Part shown: positions 13,556 to 34,419 of the stretch, in pieces
Layout of the letters: every line of letters starts with the position of its first letter
Position numbering within the stretch: the first letter of the stretch is position 1
Assembly: GCA_018238375.1 (NCBI GenBank)
Contig: JABCTJ010000130.1
Span: 1-36,059, forward strand
DNA from: Candidatus Thorarchaeota archaeon
GTDB taxonomy: Archaea; Asgardarchaeota; Thorarchaeia; Thorarchaeales; Thorarchaeaceae
Direction of reading: 5' to 3'
DNA: 36,059 bases
Position numbers and translations under genes: made by a program
The notes under the pieces: model-generated
Database searches by the model: none
What the model saw: the letters and a program-made list of their open reading frames with translations, nothing else
What the model was told of the DNA's origin: nothing

Positions 13556-13633
13556 TGGTGCCCCGGCCGGGATTTGAACCCGGGTCATAGGGTCGAAAAC
13601 CCTAGATGCTGGGCCGGACTACACTACCGGGGC
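13556..13633 (-). tRNA. tRNA-Glu (anticodon TTC), 3' CCA encoded
   Basis: GCCCCGG/CCGGGGC acceptor, anticodon arm TAGGG-TTTTCGA-CCCTA, T arm CCGGG-TTCAAAT-CCCGG, followed by A-CCA. Confidence 0.95.
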
Positions 13634-15214: not shown

Positions 15215-15288
15215 GGGCCCGTAGCTCAGCTTGGTAGAGCAGCAGGCTCATAACCTGTCGGTCGTGAGTTCAAATCTCGCCGGGCCCA
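15215..15288 (+). tRNA. tRNA with CAT anticodon (elongator Met or Ile2)
   Basis: Acceptor GGGCCCG/CGGGCCC, D arm GCTC-AGCTTGGTA-GAGC, anticodon arm GCAGG-CTCATAA-CCTGT, T arm GTGAG-TTCAAAT-CTCGC; CCA not encoded. Confidence 0.93.
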
Positions 15289-15362
15289 CATTCTTTTCTC
15301 ACACTTAGCAAGGGCCTTATACCACCTTCACACTACTCCACATCTACATAGGAGCAGTTGAG

Positions 15363-27766: not shown

Positions 27767-28846
27767 ATGACTGCGATAATTGATATTGATGGCTCCTACG
27801 GTGAGGGCGGTGGACAGATTCTGCGAACCTCGGTTTCATTATCCGCTTTAACTATGAAACCAGTAAGAATCACGAATATCCGGGCAGGGCGGCGCAAACC
27901 GGGACTTAGAAGACAGCATATCGCAGGAATAGAGCTTACGGCCCAGCTTGTCGACGCTTCGGTCAAGGGCTTGGAAGTGGGAAGTACAGAAATCGAGTTT
28001 GCACCAAGAACAAGGCAGAGTGGTGAGTTTAGCTACGACGTAGGAACAGCCGGTTCCATATCCCTAATCCTTCAAGCTGTGCTTCCGCCTGCGGTGCTAT
28101 CGCCAGAACCAGTAAGTTTCAAATTAAGGGGAGGTACCGATGTTGCTTGGAGTCCACCAATCGACTATATGCGCAATCTGTTTGTCAATGTCCTGCATCA
28201 AATGGGGCCTCGTGTAAAAATCGTCCAGCATCGACGCGGCCACTACCCCAGAGGTGGAGGCGATGTTTCATGTGAAATAATCCCTGTGAAAACGATTCAG
28301 CCGCTCGATTTGGTGCAATTCGGTGAGCTGCAGTATGTAAACGGTATCTCTCATTGTGTCAGGTTGCCCTCACATGTTGCGGAAAGGCAGGCTTTGTCAG
28401 CGGAAACCATTCTAGCTGAACACGACATAGAAACAGAACACATAGTTCGCGAGAGCTATCCAAAGAACAAGGACCCGCATCTGGGCCCGGGAAGTGGCAT
28501 TGTTATCTGGGCCGAGTCTCGCGATGGTATCCGGCTTGGAGCTGACAATCTTGGAGAAAGAGGGAAGAGAGCAGAAATTGTCGGCGCGGAATCCGCTCAG
28601 CATCTCTTGAGCGAACTTTCAACGGAGATGGCCATTGATTCGCATCTGAGTGACATGCTTGTGCCTTTTCTTGCTATAGCATCGGGCAGGAGTAGAATTG
28701 GTGTGACTGAGATAACATCTCATCTAGAAACAAACATCTGGGTGGTAGAACGCATCCTAGGCCTCAAGATGACACTTGAGGGGGAAATCGGATCTTCAGG
28801 AATCCTGACATCAGAAGGAGTTGGACTTTTCTCTGGAGAGGGATGA
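27767..28846 (+). CDS. rtcA: RNA 3'-terminal phosphate cyclase
   Basis: IDGSYGEGGGQILRTSVSLSALT, NIRAGRRKPGLRRQH, GHYPRGGGDV. Confidence 0.93.
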   Translation: MTAIIDIDGSYGEGGGQILRTSVSLSALTMKPVRITNIRAGRRKPGLRRQHIAGIELTAQLVDASVKGLEVGSTEIEFAPRTRQSGEFSYDVGTAGSISLILQAVLPPAVLSPEPVSFKLRGGTDVAWSPPIDYMRNLFVNVLHQMGPRVKIVQHRRGHYPRGGGDVSCEIIPVKTIQPLDLVQFGELQYVNGISHCVRLPSHVAERQALSAETILAEHDIETEHIVRESYPKNKDPHLGPGSGIVIWAESRDGIRLGADNLGERGKRAEIVGAESAQHLLSELSTEMAIDSHLSDMLVPFLAIASGRSRIGVTEITSHLETNIWVVERILGLKMTLEGEIGSSGILTSEGVGLFSGEG

Positions 28847-29881
28847 AACGTACTCATCCACTGACTCCTGAAGAGAAGTCAGGTCGACCGCCTCAACCGC
28901 AGCTCTCATCAATTCGTCGATGCCCACTCCCTCGCTAGCGATAATCTCATGACTCGGTTGCAACTTGATTCTTGCCGCCTTCAAGTGCTCTGGAGGAGTG
29001 ATGTCTACCTTGTTGAAGACCACCAACAATGGATTAAGGGGAAACATTCGGCGGACCTCGTTGTATAGATTTACCTGCTCATCGATGTTCCAGCCGCAAG
29101 CCTCAGATGGATCTACCATGAAGATGATTACGTGAGCCAGATACTTAAGCGCTGCAATCGCAGCCCTCTCGATTTCGTTCCTTTCAGCCATCGGGCGATC
29201 GAGAATTCCCGGCGTATCAACGACCTGAACACTGTGGTTCTCAACAGTCAGATGGCCCACGATGACTTCACGTGTTGTGAATGGATAGTATGCAATCTCG
29301 GGCTTAGCCGTAGAAACAGCCTTGACAAGGGTGGACTTGCCGACATTTGGAAAACCTGCGCAAACAATGGTGGGCGAGTTGGGACTTATACCGGGAAGAC
29401 GGGACATGACCATCTTGGCCTCGATGATGAAGTCCAGGTTCTTTCCTGTGGTTCTCAAGATTGACGATATTCGCCCCTTCGCGGCACTACGTGACCGCTT
29501 CAGCTGTTTGAAATCATTAGCCAGTTTGAGTGCTTCGAGATGCTTGCTGGCTATGTCGTCGATGAGAGTGATGCAATTGTATACCGCTCCCAAGGATTGC
29601 TTGAGCTTGTCAGTACCCACAAGAACCTCTGTCAGTTCCAAGTAGAATGGATGCATACGTTCCAAGGACGGAAATTTCTCCACTGCTATTCGGAGCTTCG
29701 CTTTCACGTGTTTCACGAATTCCTGAAGGCGCGTAATCTCTCTGATTCGAGTTCTTTCAACCTTCTTTAGCCTGTGCGAGCTCTTCATGCTCGCGCTAGT
29801 CGATTTGTTATGCGCAAATGTAATGAGCTCCTCCGCAGTCATGATGGTCGGAATGTCTGCAAAAGGATTCATTCGACGCAT
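28811..29881 (-). CDS. NOG1-like GTPase
   Basis: 356 aa; GFPNVGKSTLVKAVS, VVDTPGILDRPMAERNEIE, VFNKVD. Confidence 0.9.
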   Translation of the reverse strand: MRRMNPFADIPTIMTAEELITFAHNKSTSASMKSSHRLKKVERTRIREITRLQEFVKHVKAKLRIAVEKFPSLERMHPFYLELTEVLVGTDKLKQSLGAVYNCITLIDDIASKHLEALKLANDFKQLKRSRSAAKGRISSILRTTGKNLDFIIEAKMVMSRLPGISPNSPTIVCAGFPNVGKSTLVKAVSTAKPEIAYYPFTTREVIVGHLTVENHSVQVVDTPGILDRPMAERNEIERAAIAALKYLAHVIIFMVDPSEACGWNIDEQVNLYNEVRRMFPLNPLLVVFNKVDITPPEHLKAARIKLQPSHEIIASEGVGIDELMRAAVEAVDLTSLQESVDEYVSSLSREKSNSF

Positions 29882-30048
29882 TGATGGATTACATCCTTGG
29901 AATCATTATTCAGTTATTCAAGCAGAAGAGAGGAATAGGAGGTTCTTCTGCAGTGAGTCTACTGACTAAATGTCAGGTATGGGTAATGTTTTAAAAACAA
30001 CCGGCATGACCAAACGAACTGAAGAGGACCCCATGGAGGCAAAAATGA

Positions 30049-30642
30049 ATGTCACTTCCAACAGGCGCAACTATTGTCGGTATCAAGTGCAGTGACGGAG
30101 CCGTTGTAGCAACAGACTCTCTGATAAGCTGGGGTACAATGGTCCTGAGTGATAGGGGTGTAAAAGCGTTCAAGCTCACGGATACTATAGTGCTAGCCTC
30201 CGCGGGCCTAACCTCTGATTATCAAATGCTCGTGAATCGTTTGCAGGCTCAAATCAAGCTCTATGAACTAAACCAGAAGAAGAAGATTGGCGTTAAGGTT
30301 CTGTCAAAGATGGTTGCAAACACGCTCTATTCACGACGAATGATGCCTCTATACATCCAGACAGTGATTGTCGGGCTTGATGTAGATGGACCCGCCCTTT
30401 ACACACTCGATATGGGAGGTTCTCTAATTCCTGATGAATACACCGCCGCAGGTACGGGCGTTCGCACTGCCTATGGTGTGCTTGAGAATGATTTCAAGGC
30501 TGGCCTAACTGTGAAGGAAGCCGAGGAGATTGCTGTCCGAGCCGTGAAAGCAGGTATCGCACGAGATGTGCAGTCAGGAGGACCCATCCAAGTCATGGTT
30601 GTAACCAAGGATGGGGTTACTGAACGAATTATTGAGAACTAG
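30049..30642 (+). CDS. psmB: Proteasome beta subunit, predicted to lack the catalytic Thr1 (Ala instead)
   Basis: MSLPTG-ATIVGIKCSDGAVVATD...; gapless alignment to the recalled T. acidophilum beta N-terminus; C-terminal RDVQSGGPIQV. Confidence 0.88.
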   Translation: MSLPTGATIVGIKCSDGAVVATDSLISWGTMVLSDRGVKAFKLTDTIVLASAGLTSDYQMLVNRLQAQIKLYELNQKKKIGVKVLSKMVANTLYSRRMMPLYIQTVIVGLDVDGPALYTLDMGGSLIPDEYTAAGTGVRTAYGVLENDFKAGLTVKEAEEIAVRAVKAGIARDVQSGGPIQVMVVTKDGVTERIIEN

Positions 30643-31907
30643 TGCGTGTGTACCTATTGGACTCGCACACACTCGTTTTTTCGGCGCATTCTTCATCTAG
30701 ATACAGTCTTGCGGCTCTTCTTGGTGCTGTTGAAACGGACCCACGACTTGCAGATCTGCACGTGGTTGCTCCACTAGAGCTCACTGAGAGTGTGCTGGAG
30801 AAAATGGCCGCTCAGGGACGACTCATCATTGCCCACTCTGTGATGTCAACCCAAACTGAGAGAGTCTATCATGAGGTGAGTAAGGCTCGGAAGAAGCTTG
30901 GTAGTGGTACGACGCTAATAGCTGGGGGAGCCCACGCAAGCGCGCGACCAGGGGAGCTGTTGGATGCAGGTTTTGATTATGTGGTAGTTGGTGAGGGTGA
31001 GCAGGTATTTCCCGAGCTCTTATGGCGCCTCATGAATAATCAAGATACTGATACAATAGCAGGAGTGGTCTCAGAGCAATCTAAGAACTATCCTAAGCCA
31101 CGTAACTTGCCTCGAATACAGCTTGATGACTATCCGCCATTTGCATTGGACATGAATATCGTGGGTCCAGTAGAGGTCACGCGTGGATGCCCATATGCCT
31201 GCAAATTTTGTTGTACGCCGTTTCTGACAGGAGGTCGAGTCAGACATAGATCTGTGGAGTCTATCACGAAATGGCTCCGCACGGCCGTGGAAAAGAGAGG
31301 GTTTCAGCGCACATGGTTTCTGTCACCGAATGCGCTTTGTTATGGAGGACGAGGTCGTAACGTTGTTCCTGAGAAGCTGGAACACCTTCTGAAAGAGAGT
31401 ACCTCCATTGAAGGTCTTGATGAAGTCTTCTTTGGCTCCTTTCCATCAGAGGTAAGGCCCGAGTTCGTGAGCAAGGAAATTCTCGAACTATTACGGCACT
31501 ACGTGGCAAACAAGACACTGCAGATAGGTCTGCAATCTGGGAGCGATAAAGTTCTCAAGGCCGCAAACAGGCAGCACACCGTCGCTGAGGGGTTAGACGC
31601 AGTCAGGATTGCGCTAGATTGTGGTTTCATACCTCATGTGGACATAATTTTTGGGCTCCCAGAAGAAGCGAAAGAAGATGTGGATGCAAGCATCGAGCTC
31701 TGTCATGATCTTGTAGATATGGGTGCCAGATTGCATGGGCATGTATTCATGCCTTTACCCGGAAGCGATTTCGAGAATATGCCACCAGGTCGACTAGATG
31801 ATGAAACTCGCAGAGTTCTTGGAGATTTATCAAGACGTAAGGTGTTGACTGGCGCGTGGGGCAATCAAGAGAGCTTGGCTGAGAAGCTGGCTACAGTTGA
31901 TAGATAA
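30642..31907 (+). CDS. B12-binding domain / radical SAM protein
   Basis: GTG start overlapping the psmB stop; VVVGEGEQVFPEL, EVTRGCPYACKFCC (CxxxCxxC), LQIGLQSGSDKVL. Confidence 0.88.
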   Translation: MRVYLLDSHTLVFSAHSSSRYSLAALLGAVETDPRLADLHVVAPLELTESVLEKMAAQGRLIIAHSVMSTQTERVYHEVSKARKKLGSGTTLIAGGAHASARPGELLDAGFDYVVVGEGEQVFPELLWRLMNNQDTDTIAGVVSEQSKNYPKPRNLPRIQLDDYPPFALDMNIVGPVEVTRGCPYACKFCCTPFLTGGRVRHRSVESITKWLRTAVEKRGFQRTWFLSPNALCYGGRGRNVVPEKLEHLLKESTSIEGLDEVFFGSFPSEVRPEFVSKEILELLRHYVANKTLQIGLQSGSDKVLKAANRQHTVAEGLDAVRIALDCGFIPHVDIIFGLPEEAKEDVDASIELCHDLVDMGARLHGHVFMPLPGSDFENMPPGRLDDETRRVLGDLSRRKVLTGAWGNQESLAEKLATVDR

Positions 31908-31910
31908 GAT

Positions 31911-32954
31911 GTGGTCACCGCATCAATCCGCTCATGCTGCCAAACGCTGATAAGAGAAAACAGAGGTCCCATCGCGATTGTAACATTGAGTTCGAACATG
32001 CCTGACGAGTTGCGCAAGAAGCTGAAACAGCAGGGATATCATCTTCTCGGTCAGAGAGGGGCATACAAGGCATGTCAATGGCAGAAGAAGAGCCTTCTCC
32101 ACGGAAATAGCTGCTACAAAGAGAGATTCTACGGAATCGAATCGCACAGGTGTCTACAGATGACTCCAGTTGTAGACAAGTGCACGCAGAATTGTGAGTT
32201 TTGCTGGCGTGTAACTCCCGTCGATCTTGGCATTGGATGGGACCAAGTTCATGTTTCAAAAGAGGATGTAATGCGACCGGATGAGCTGCTTGATGCCACA
32301 ATCATGGCGAATCTCAGGTCACTGGGAGGGTTCAACCCAGAGGCAGGAGCCAGCGTTTCCAAAGAGAAGTACCTTGAGGCAAGAGACCCCAAGCACATCG
32401 CCATATCGCTCGCGGGGGAGCCAACGCTCTACCCGTTCCTAAGCGAGCTTGTGGATGCGGCTAGTCGAAGGGGGATGACTTCGTTCATTGTAACAAATGG
32501 GACCCGTCCGGATGTATTGGCGGACATGTCACTTCCTACTCAGCTTTATGTCACGATTGCTGCACCAGACGAGAAGACACATACAATGCTATGCAGGCCG
32601 TCAATCAAGGGGGCTTGGGAGCGTTTGATTGAGAGTCAGGAATTACTTCAATCTCTGTCTTGTCGCAGTGTGAATAGGTTGACAATGGTATCTGGTCGTA
32701 ACATGCACGACGCGCGGTCTTATTCGGCGTTGATTCTCAAAGGTGAGCCGGATTTTATCGAGGTCAAAGCCTACATGTACCTCGGTTCCTCGAGGGGGCG
32801 ACTAGAAAAACAGAATTCGCCCTCGCATAGGGAAATTCGCGCGTTTTCACAGAAGCTGGCGTCACTGACAGGTTATTATCTGGTTGATGAGCAGAACGAG
32901 AGCAGAGTGGTACTGCTTTCACGGAGCAAACAAGTTAAGAGGATTCAGCTATAA
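31911..32954 (+). CDS. taw1: tRNA 4-demethylwyosine synthase (TYW1-like radical SAM)
   Basis: QMTPVVDKCTQNCEFCWR, HIAISLAGEPTLYPFLSEL, FIVTNGTRPDVL, FIEVKAYMYLGSSRGRL. Confidence 0.92.
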   Translation: MVTASIRSCCQTLIRENRGPIAIVTLSSNMPDELRKKLKQQGYHLLGQRGAYKACQWQKKSLLHGNSCYKERFYGIESHRCLQMTPVVDKCTQNCEFCWRVTPVDLGIGWDQVHVSKEDVMRPDELLDATIMANLRSLGGFNPEAGASVSKEKYLEARDPKHIAISLAGEPTLYPFLSELVDAASRRGMTSFIVTNGTRPDVLADMSLPTQLYVTIAAPDEKTHTMLCRPSIKGAWERLIESQELLQSLSCRSVNRLTMVSGRNMHDARSYSALILKGEPDFIEVKAYMYLGSSRGRLEKQNSPSHREIRAFSQKLASLTGYYLVDEQNESRVVLLSRSKQVKRIQL

Positions 32955-32972: not shown

Positions 32973-33611
32973 ATGAGTTTAGCAGACATTTTGAAACCTC
33001 TTATAGAAGAGATTGAAGCTGATGATGATGTGCGGGAGAAAGTCCTGCCGCAAGCTCGAAAAGCAGTAAGGTTATGCAGTCAATCAATAAAGGCATCTCA
33101 TAGAGGACAGTATGAAGAGGCAATGGAATCCATGAGTCAGGCACACAGCGTCATCCGTGAATCTCTCAAGGATCTATCGGGTAGTGCCTACGTGTCAAGG
33201 TCGAGGGCCTTGGACACTGCATATCAGGAATTGGCAGAGGCAGCTAATGTCTTCTCCTTACTCAAGGATGGTAAATTCACTCCACCCCAATCATATGGGA
33301 TTCCAATCAGGGCATACCTAACTGGACTGGCTGATACAGTAGGCGAGCTTAGAAGAGCATGTCTCGACTCTCTGCGTGTCGATGATGTGACGCGAGCAGA
33401 GGGTCTACTTGGTGTTATGGAAGAGATTTTTGACGAACTTCATTCACTTGATTTCCCAAATGCATTAATTCCAGATTTGAGGAGGAAATGTGATGTTGCA
33501 CGTTCACTGATAGAACGCACTCGAGGCGATATCACGTCTGCTGTCCGACAGAATAAGCTTGTAAGCGAGTTGAAGGGATTCGAAGAACGAATCAAGGATA
33601 ACGGGAAATGA
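32973..33611 (+). CDS. Translin family protein
   Basis: 212 aa all-helical; REKVLPQARKAVRLCSQSIKASHRGQYEEAM...YQELAEAANVFSLLKDGKF...YLTGLADTVGELRRACLDSL. Confidence 0.85.
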   Translation: MSLADILKPLIEEIEADDDVREKVLPQARKAVRLCSQSIKASHRGQYEEAMESMSQAHSVIRESLKDLSGSAYVSRSRALDTAYQELAEAANVFSLLKDGKFTPPQSYGIPIRAYLTGLADTVGELRRACLDSLRVDDVTRAEGLLGVMEEIFDELHSLDFPNALIPDLRRKCDVARSLIERTRGDITSAVRQNKLVSELKGFEERIKDNGK

Positions 33612-33742
33612 ATAACATGGATGGACCGGTAGATGTGTCCATTGGACGGGGAACAAGCTTAGCAACAGCTATAAGAATCATTCAAGCGTGGGGCCATATC
33701 GAAGTCAATAGTAAGGATGATGGAAGTGTATCTCAGAAATGA
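33608..33742 (+). CDS. Small ORF, 44 aa, unknown function
   Basis: MNNMDGPVDVSIGRGTSLATAIRIIQAWGHIEVNSKDDGSVSQK; ATGA overlaps with translin upstream and ribK downstream; not in the supplied ORF track. Confidence 0.65.
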   Translation: MNNMDGPVDVSIGRGTSLATAIRIIQAWGHIEVNSKDDGSVSQK

Positions 33743-34419
33743 ACGCACCTGACATCTGGTTCACTCTATTTGCGCTTGCCAAGAAGGGAGCAATACATCA
33801 AGGAATTAATCTTACTACGCGTGAGCTGGGTGAAACCCTGAATGTGAGTCAGCAAACAGCGTCACGAAGAATCTTGTTCTGTTTCGAACAGGGGCTTGTG
33901 AGTAGATCACACACAGCCAACGGCATGGTCATTCATCTAACTGAGAAAGGACGAAAGGAACTTGTTCGAGTTTCTCAAGGATTGGAGATTGCATTCGCAC
34001 CCCCCGAGGACGAGATCATAATAGAGGGGCAGGTGGTTGAAGGTCTTGGTGAGGGAGCATACTATGTGGATATGTATGCTTCGCGAATTCAAGAGTCATT
34101 GGGCTTTGTGCCATACTCTGGGACACTAAACGTAAGAGTGGCAAACGAGAACTCGAATAAGGCCATCAGTAGAATGAAACAAACTACCCCGCTTATTATG
34201 AAGGGCTTCAGTCATGAAAGCCGTACATTCGGAGACGTAATCTGCTACAGGATCAAAGTCAACCAAGCTGTCGAAGGAGTAATTGTAATCGCTCAACGAA
34301 CACATCACAGTCAGAACATCCTTGAAGTAATAGCTCCAATCAACTTGAGGAAGAAGCTTCGCCTTAGCCGGGGAGACAATGTGACTCTGACTGTTGTACC
34401 ACTTCATTTGGTCACCTAA
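33739..34419 (+). CDS. ribK: CTP-dependent riboflavin kinase with N-terminal HTH
   Basis: HTH LGETLNVSQQTASRRILFCFEQGLV; GLGEGAYYVDMYASRIQESLGFVPYSGTLNVRV. Confidence 0.9.
   Translation: MNAPDIWFTLFALAKKGAIHQGINLTTRELGETLNVSQQTASRRILFCFEQGLVSRSHTANGMVIHLTEKGRKELVRVSQGLEIAFAPPEDEIIIEGQVVEGLGEGAYYVDMYASRIQESLGFVPYSGTLNVRVANENSNKAISRMKQTTPLIMKGFSHESRTFGDVICYRIKVNQAVEGVIVIAQRTHHSQNILEVIAPINLRKKLRLSRGDNVTLTVVPLHLVT

What the first reader, a model, noticed from the sequence alone, without database searches (positions are those of the whole stretch)
30049..30642. Proteasome beta subunit with the catalytic Thr1 replaced by Ala
The N-terminus MSLPTG-ATIVGIKCSDGAVVATDSLISWGTMVLSDRGVKAFKL aligns without gaps to the recalled T. 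acidophilum mature beta subunit ([37 protein letters not shown]). Residue 1 becomes Ala (codon GCA at 30067-30069), while D17, K33 and the C-terminal RD..SGG motif are kept and the Gly before the cleavage site remains. That predicts a structural, non-proteolytic beta subunit, as in eukaryotic beta3/4/6/7 and the proposed inactive beta of two-beta archaea. It implies a separate active beta gene and a mixed beta ring.
Basis: partly seen in the sequence, partly recalled or inferred. Interest (0 to 1): 0.8.

Follow-up and report, generated by a model that had tools for sequence, protein, structure and literature searches.

The report
Ancient non-cutting archaeal proteasome subunit
This Asgard archaeon carries, beside its normal protein-cutting proteasome subunit, a second subunit whose cutting amino acid is replaced by alanine; the same alanine-bearing gene is conserved across many related archaea, so part of the proteasome's inner wall there is probably built as non-cutting scaffold, much as in our own cells.

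Summary
Confirmed, and not a local oddity. ORF 30049-30642 (+) encodes a 197-aa proteasome beta subunit with Ala (GCA, 30067-30069) at the Thr1 position; Asp17, Lys33 and RDxxSG are kept. The same Thorarchaeota genome encodes a canonical Thr1 beta and two alphas. All 21 full-length orthologues in its family have Ala1. So do 75 of 80 named hits across Asgard and TACK archaea, and S. acidocaldarius Saci0662 (native LEELP|ATAIG). All four Ala codons occur at the site; dN/dS is 0.09-0.14. Asgard and TACK copies form one clade (bootstrap 100, SH-aLRT 99) even without position 1 and active-site columns, and share gene neighbours from Thorarchaeota to Bathyarchaeota. Published reconstitution of Saci0662 gives the mechanism: with alpha it forms a stable 28-mer without activity; the Thr1 beta, which does not assemble with alpha alone, then enters and confers activity. 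Best reading: an ancient structural beta subunit of TACK and Asgard proteasomes, used in mixed beta rings. Whether eukaryotic non-catalytic beta3/4/6/7 descend from it is unresolved: a human-only tree said yes, adding yeast removed the support (AU p 0.39-0.47), and several Asgard families lack it.

The parts
30049..30642 (+). structural (Ala1) proteasome beta subunit, 197 aa
   Evidence: AF2 model pLDDT 90.0, pTM 0.87; Foldseek match to 6z46 (Saci0613/Saci0662), rmsd 1.0-1.1 A
30035..30039 (+). GGAGG, likely ribosome-binding site, 9 bases before the ATG
   Evidence: sequence
30049..30066 (+). short N-terminal leader MSLPTG, ending in the Gly(-1) found before Thr1 in active betas; without Thr1 it cannot be removed by self-cleavage (inference)
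30067..30069 (+). codon GCA, Ala at the Thr1 (nucleophile) position
30115..30117 (+). Asp17 codon (kept)
30163..30165 (+). Lys33 codon (kept; Lys in every archaeal structural beta of the tree set)
30562..30576 (+). RDxxS motif (Arg172-Asp173...Ser176), kept
28811..29881 (-). NOG1-type GTPase, divergent neighbour; the pair NOG1 / Ala1-beta is kept in many TACK and Asgard genomes
   Evidence: Pfam; synteny
27767..28846 (+). RNA 3'-phosphate cyclase, conserved neighbour
30642..31907 (+). B12-binding radical SAM protein; its GTG start overlaps the beta stop by one base (TAGTG)
31911..32954 (+). TYW1-like (wyosine) radical SAM protein, conserved neighbour
32973..33611 (+). translin-family protein, conserved neighbour
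33739..34419 (+). CTP-dependent riboflavin kinase (DUF120), conserved neighbour

Best explanation
The gene encodes a structural, non-proteolytic 20S proteasome beta subunit. It is an orthologue of Sulfolobus acidocaldarius Saci0662 and belongs to an ancient paralogue clade kept across TACK and Asgard archaea, fixed for Ala at the nucleophile position. It folds as a normal beta subunit (predicted here) and is expected to form beta rings on the alpha ring. The separate Thr1 beta of the same genome joins these rings and provides all cutting sites, so only some of the 14 beta positions cut. Shown: sequence, conservation, clade, synteny and co-occurrence with an active beta. Shown by others for the orthologue: inactive alpha + Saci0662 28-mer, activity only after adding Saci0909. 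Inferred: the same assembly in Thorarchaeota, a retained leader, and mixed rather than separate homomeric beta rings.
For: Ala1 in 21 of 21 full-length family members, 75 of 80 named TACK and Asgard hits and the native Saci0662 of the genome identified as S. acidocaldarius by 100% match to 6z46_H. An active Thr1 beta in all 24 other family genomes and in most sampled TACK genomes. All four Ala codons in use and dN/dS 0.09-0.14. One clade of structural betas, 100/99, with position 1 and active-site columns removed. Conserved neighbourhood RTC / NOG1 / beta / TYW1 / translin in Thor-, Njord-, Odin-, Bathyarchaeota and Methanomethylicota, absent around active betas. Fold. Biochemistry of the orthologue: PMC4569737.
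Against: No assay in any Asgard archaeon. Catalytic partners Lys33 and Asp17 are kept, so another chemistry is not strictly excluded, although Lys33 is also kept in eukaryotic inactive subunits. Stoichiometry and arrangement of the two betas in one particle are unknown even in Sulfolobus.
Confidence: 0.87

Rival explanations
1. Shifted nucleophile: Thr at position 2 (TG-A|TIVG) is exposed by trimming and acts as the N-terminal nucleophile, so the subunit is active.
For: Thr2 is nearly invariant in the clade. Anjum et al. 2015 took a threonine of Saci0662 as T1; by the alignment here the Thr at the chain start of 6z46_H is position 2 and native position 1 is Ala.
Against: The Saci0662 construct truncated at its presumed T1 assembled with alpha but showed no activity. 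Thr2 is also Thr in active betas, so its conservation needs no such role. Some Asgard members have Ala or Cys at position 2.
Confidence: 0.04
2. The two betas do not share rings: the Ala1 beta forms homomeric inactive particles or rings (storage, chaperone-like or negative regulation), separate from active particles.
For: Alpha + Saci0662 alone forms a stable 28-mer in E. coli. Some Asgard and other archaea manage with one active beta.
Against: In Sulfolobus the active beta failed to form a complex with alpha alone and appeared with Saci0662 in one 28-mer, so in that lineage active particles need the structural subunit.
Confidence: 0.07
3. A decaying pseudo-enzyme or a sequencing or assembly error.
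For: Single draft MAG, 5.3% contamination.
Against: Same residue in well over 100 distinct sequences from many projects, four synonymous codons, strong purifying selection, deep synteny.
Confidence: 0.01

Closest known systems
Saci0662, structural 20S beta subunit of Sulfolobus acidocaldarius (PDB 6z46; PMC4569737)
   Same: Same clade in every tree, Ala1 in the native gene, Lys33 and RDxxSG kept, best PDB sequence match, model rmsd 1.0-1.1 A, partner of a separate Thr1 beta.
   Different: About 37% identity; Thorarchaeota have Asp17 instead of Glu17, a TG instead of LP end of the leader, and two alpha genes; activity untested in Thorarchaeota.
Canonical archaeal proteasome beta (T. acidophilum, A. 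fulgidus, M. jannaschii; TIGR03634)
   Same: Fold, Asp17/Lys33, Gly47, RDxxSG.
   Different: No Thr1, so no nucleophile and no self-processing; below the TIGR03634 cut-off.
Eukaryotic non-catalytic beta3, beta4, beta6, beta7
   Same: Non-catalytic betas sharing a ring with catalytic ones; Lys33 mostly kept.
   Different: Each eukaryotic subunit has a fixed place and diverged active-site residues; common descent with the archaeal structural clade unresolved.

Membership tests
Structural (Saci0662-type) archaeal proteasome beta | Groups with Saci0662 rather than with catalytic betas | tested here: met
   SH-aLRT 90; 100/99 without position 1 and active-site columns
Structural (Saci0662-type) archaeal proteasome beta | No Thr at position 1 | tested here: met
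   Ala1
Structural (Saci0662-type) archaeal proteasome beta | Co-occurs with alpha and a Thr1 beta in one genome | tested here: met
Structural (Saci0662-type) archaeal proteasome beta | Shared gene neighbourhood with TACK orthologues | tested here: met
   NOG1, TYW1 and translin neighbours in many TACK and Asgard loci; not seen within 1.5 kb of Saci0662 itself
Structural (Saci0662-type) archaeal proteasome beta | Assembles with alpha into an inactive 28-mer and admits the active beta | not testable with these tools
   Shown for Saci0662 only (PMC4569737)
Catalytic archaeal proteasome beta (TIGR03634 equivalog) | Thr1 nucleophile freed by cleavage after Gly(-1) | tested here: not met
   Ala1 in place of Thr1
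Catalytic archaeal proteasome beta (TIGR03634 equivalog) | Score over the curated cut-off (224 bits) | tested here: not met
   196.7 bits
Proteasome superfamily (Pfam PF00227) | Score over the gathering cut-off and proteasome beta fold | tested here: met
   163 bits against 22.4; AF2 and Foldseek
Eukaryotic non-catalytic beta3/4/6/7 | Common descent with them, apart from catalytic betas | tested here: inconclusive
   Human only: same side, 98/99. Human + yeast: not resolved; p-AU 0.39 and 0.47 for the joint clade

The most novel reading that the evidence does not exclude
The non-catalytic betas of the eukaryotic proteasome (beta3, beta4, beta6, beta7) descend from this archaeal structural beta and the catalytic ones (beta1, beta2, beta5) from the Thr1 beta, so the mixed active/inactive ring was inherited from the archaeal ancestor and not invented in eukaryotes.
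Probability: 0.15. Interest if true: 0.85.

Novelty: new member of a known kind. Interest (0 to 1): 0.56.

Why it matters
Archaeal proteasomes are usually described as having 14 identical cutting sites. Here a non-cutting beta with a fixed Ala1 turns out to be an old, conserved paralogue in most TACK and Asgard lineages sampled. That means partly inactive beta rings are widespread in the archaea nearest to eukaryotes. It explains why recombinant alpha + Saci0662 particles were inactive, and it makes the origin of the eukaryotic mixed beta ring a concrete, testable question.

Tried and rejected
Direct descent of eukaryotic beta3/4/6/7: a human-only tree gave a clean active/inactive split at 98/99, but with yeast added the split was lost, with or without active-site columns; the joint clade is not rejected (p-AU 0.39, 0.47) and neither is one eukaryotic clade. 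Not claimed. Sequencing error: rejected by codon diversity and conservation. Thr2 as shifted nucleophile: rejected on published data for the orthologue. Science 2020 paper on the Sulfolobus proteasome not held. Literature searches found no paper in the open library that describes the Ala1 beta as a conserved TACK/Asgard paralogue; subscription journals are not covered, so priority is uncertain.

Full report
WHAT IS THERE. Window 30049-30642 (+) encodes a 197-residue protein, MSLPTG|ATIVGIKCSDGAVVATDSLISWGTMVLSDRGVKAFKL.... It is a proteasome subunit over its whole length (PF00227, 163 bits) and closest to archaeal beta (TIGR03634), though at 196.7 bits it stays below that model's curated cut-off of 224. 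The residue aligned with the catalytic Thr1 is Ala, codon GCA at 30067-30069. Asp17, Lys33 and RDxxSG are present. An AlphaFold2 model made from 39 related sequences has mean pLDDT 90.0 and pTM 0.87. Foldseek matches it to S. acidocaldarius Saci0613/Saci0662 chains (6z46) at 1.0-1.1 A over 174-187 columns.

THE ORGANISM AND ITS OTHER SUBUNITS. The genome (G000, 2.5 Mb in 282 contigs, 92.6% complete) has four PF00227 genes: the window gene, a beta with Thr1 (VTKTG|TTTVGL, contig C235) and two alphas (C240, C49). Relatives of the same genus and family correspond to titled Thorarchaeota records: the orthologue-bearing contigs of G004, G008, G014 and G011 have the same lengths as records JAUWOA010000014, RDOC01000003, PRDJ01000021 and SDNO01000063. 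The host is therefore a Thorarchaeote (Asgard).

CONSERVATION IN THE FAMILY. Of 24 other genomes of the family, 20 have a full orthologue (70-96% identity) and all of these have Ala1, Asp17 and Lys33. The four without a full copy are 52-87% complete, and one of them holds a 26-residue fragment identical to the query. All 24 have the Thr1 beta. Within the genus dN/dS is 0.09-0.14. Further Thorarchaeota sampled later also have Ala1.

CONSERVATION BEYOND IT. One scan of named genomes with a profile of Ala1 betas returned 80 loci: 75 have Ala1, four are canonical Thr1 betas and one has Gly1. The Ala1 set covers Thor-, Odin-, Njord-, Borr-, Sif-, Jord-, Frey- and Sigynarchaeota, and Bathyarchaeota, Methanomethylicota, Culexarchaeota, Thermoprotei (Sulfolobales, Desulfurococcales) and Nitrososphaerota/Caldarchaeales. 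Of 128 distinct Ala1 sequences the codon is GCA in 52, GCG in 28, GCT in 27 and GCC in 21: the amino acid is kept while the codon drifts. In the Sulfolobales order 78 of 78 genomes match the Saci0662 query, most with three subunits in all. The genome matching 6z46_H at 100% (G098, 2,225,959 bases) reads LEELP|ATAIGIK for this gene and ILKG|TTTVGIK for the other beta. Sampled TACK genomes typically have one alpha, one Ala1 beta and one Thr1 beta. By contrast, the ten best matches fetched in Thermoplasmatota all belong to the canonical class: every beta read there has Thr1.

ONE ANCIENT PARALOGUE. In a first tree rooted with alphas the Ala1 betas of Asgard and Saci0662 form a group with SH-aLRT 90. 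With 31 structural betas from both superphyla, 180 columns, position 1 and seventeen active-site columns removed, they form one side of a branch with 100% bootstrap and 99% SH-aLRT. Gene order agrees: RNA cyclase, divergent NOG1, the Ala1 beta, then TYW1, translin and riboflavin kinase recur, whole or in part, from Thorarchaeota to Njord-, Odin- and Jordarchaeia, Bathyarchaeota and Methanomethylicota, and NOG1 is next to the gene in several Sulfolobales-order genomes. None of 55 loci with active betas (or Gly1/other controls in that list) had NOG1 or the cyclase next to them; one had TYW1 within its 10 kb. For Saci0662 itself no such neighbour was found within 1.5 kb. The simplest account is one duplication with loss of Thr1 before the TACK-Asgard split, followed by vertical descent; transfer between the groups is not formally excluded.

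HOW IT WORKS. Anjum et al. 2015 (PMC4569737) reconstituted the Sulfolobus particle. Alpha with truncated Saci0662 gave a stable 28-subunit cylinder without activity. Saci0909 did not form a complex with alpha alone. All three together gave an active 28-mer with Saci0909 at the lower ratio. The authors called both betas catalytic homologues with equivalent threonines; by the alignments here the Saci0662 threonine is position 2 and position 1 is Ala, which explains the inactive cylinder. By orthology the window gene is expected to do the same in Thorarchaeota: form the beta ring on the alpha ring and accommodate the Thr1 beta. This step is inferred. Retention of Asp17, Lys33, Gly47 and RDxxSG fits a structural role, since Lys33 is also kept in most eukaryotic non-catalytic betas. 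The Gly-Ala junction cannot be cut by the subunit itself because Thr1 is the nucleophile of self-processing (established knowledge), so the six-residue leader is probably kept (inference).

EUKARYOTES. With the seven human betas only, the best tree put beta1, 2 and 5 with archaeal active betas and beta3, 4, 6 and 7 with the structural clade (98/99). Adding yeast removed the split: eukaryotic betas then fall together weakly (29/6 without, 93/88 with active-site columns), and holding structural + eukaryotic inactive betas together costs 7.1 or 1.2 log units (p-AU 0.39 and 0.47). The branches are long and the question is open. In addition several Asgard families with large genomes (f15, f16, f18-f21, f23) show only an alpha and a Thr1 beta lying side by side, or these plus another alpha, and no structural beta; I could not name these families. 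If they are the sister group of eukaryotes, an independent eukaryotic origin becomes more likely.

VERDICT. The gene is a member of a structural beta kind already demonstrated biochemically in one Crenarchaeon. What is added is that Ala1 is its fixed hallmark, that the paralogue is ancient and widespread in TACK and Asgard archaea, and that the eukaryotic link is testable but unproven.

Noticed in passing
L002 1408-2145; L003 1414-2178 (own genome, contigs C240 and C49): Two alpha genes in the window's genome and in most Thorarchaeota: one canonical, one divergent (FAAEYAKKAVEQG) with an SBDS-like neighbour; both rings may be heteromeric.
   Followed up: partly
L072 1846-4000 (G031, 0.9 Mb Asgard genome): Three proteasome subunits in a row: Thr1 beta, a divergent alpha, and a very divergent beta with Gly1 that has lost Asp17 and Lys33.
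   Followed up: no
L065 (G029), L275 (G137): Gly instead of Ala at position 1 in an Asgard and a Thermoproteota structural beta.
   Followed up: no
L208-L212 (Sulfolobaceae relatives): Ser at position 1 of the structural beta after a Pro, four of the five with Val at position 17; Ser can be a weak nucleophile, so residual activity would be worth testing.
   Followed up: no
L320-L330, L333-L340 (Asgard families f15, f16, f18-f21, f23): No structural beta found; alpha and Thr1 beta genes lie next to each other. Families unnamed here; they may be Heimdallarchaeia-like and so matter for the eukaryotic question.
   Followed up: partly
L345 (G143, family f14): A divergent beta-like protein with Ser at position 1 and Thr/Ser instead of Asp17/Lys33, beside a separate Thr1 beta.
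   Followed up: no
L323, L347, L349 (G189); L331, L348, L360 (G167, G145): Some Asgard families carry two Thr1 betas plus the Ala1 beta, that is, three beta types.
   Followed up: no
PMC4569737, section 8: The published T1 of Saci0662 appears to be position 2; native position 1 is Ala.
   Followed up: yes
window 13556-13633 (-) and 15215-15289 (+): tRNA-Glu (TTC) and tRNA-Met (CAT) genes.
   Followed up: no
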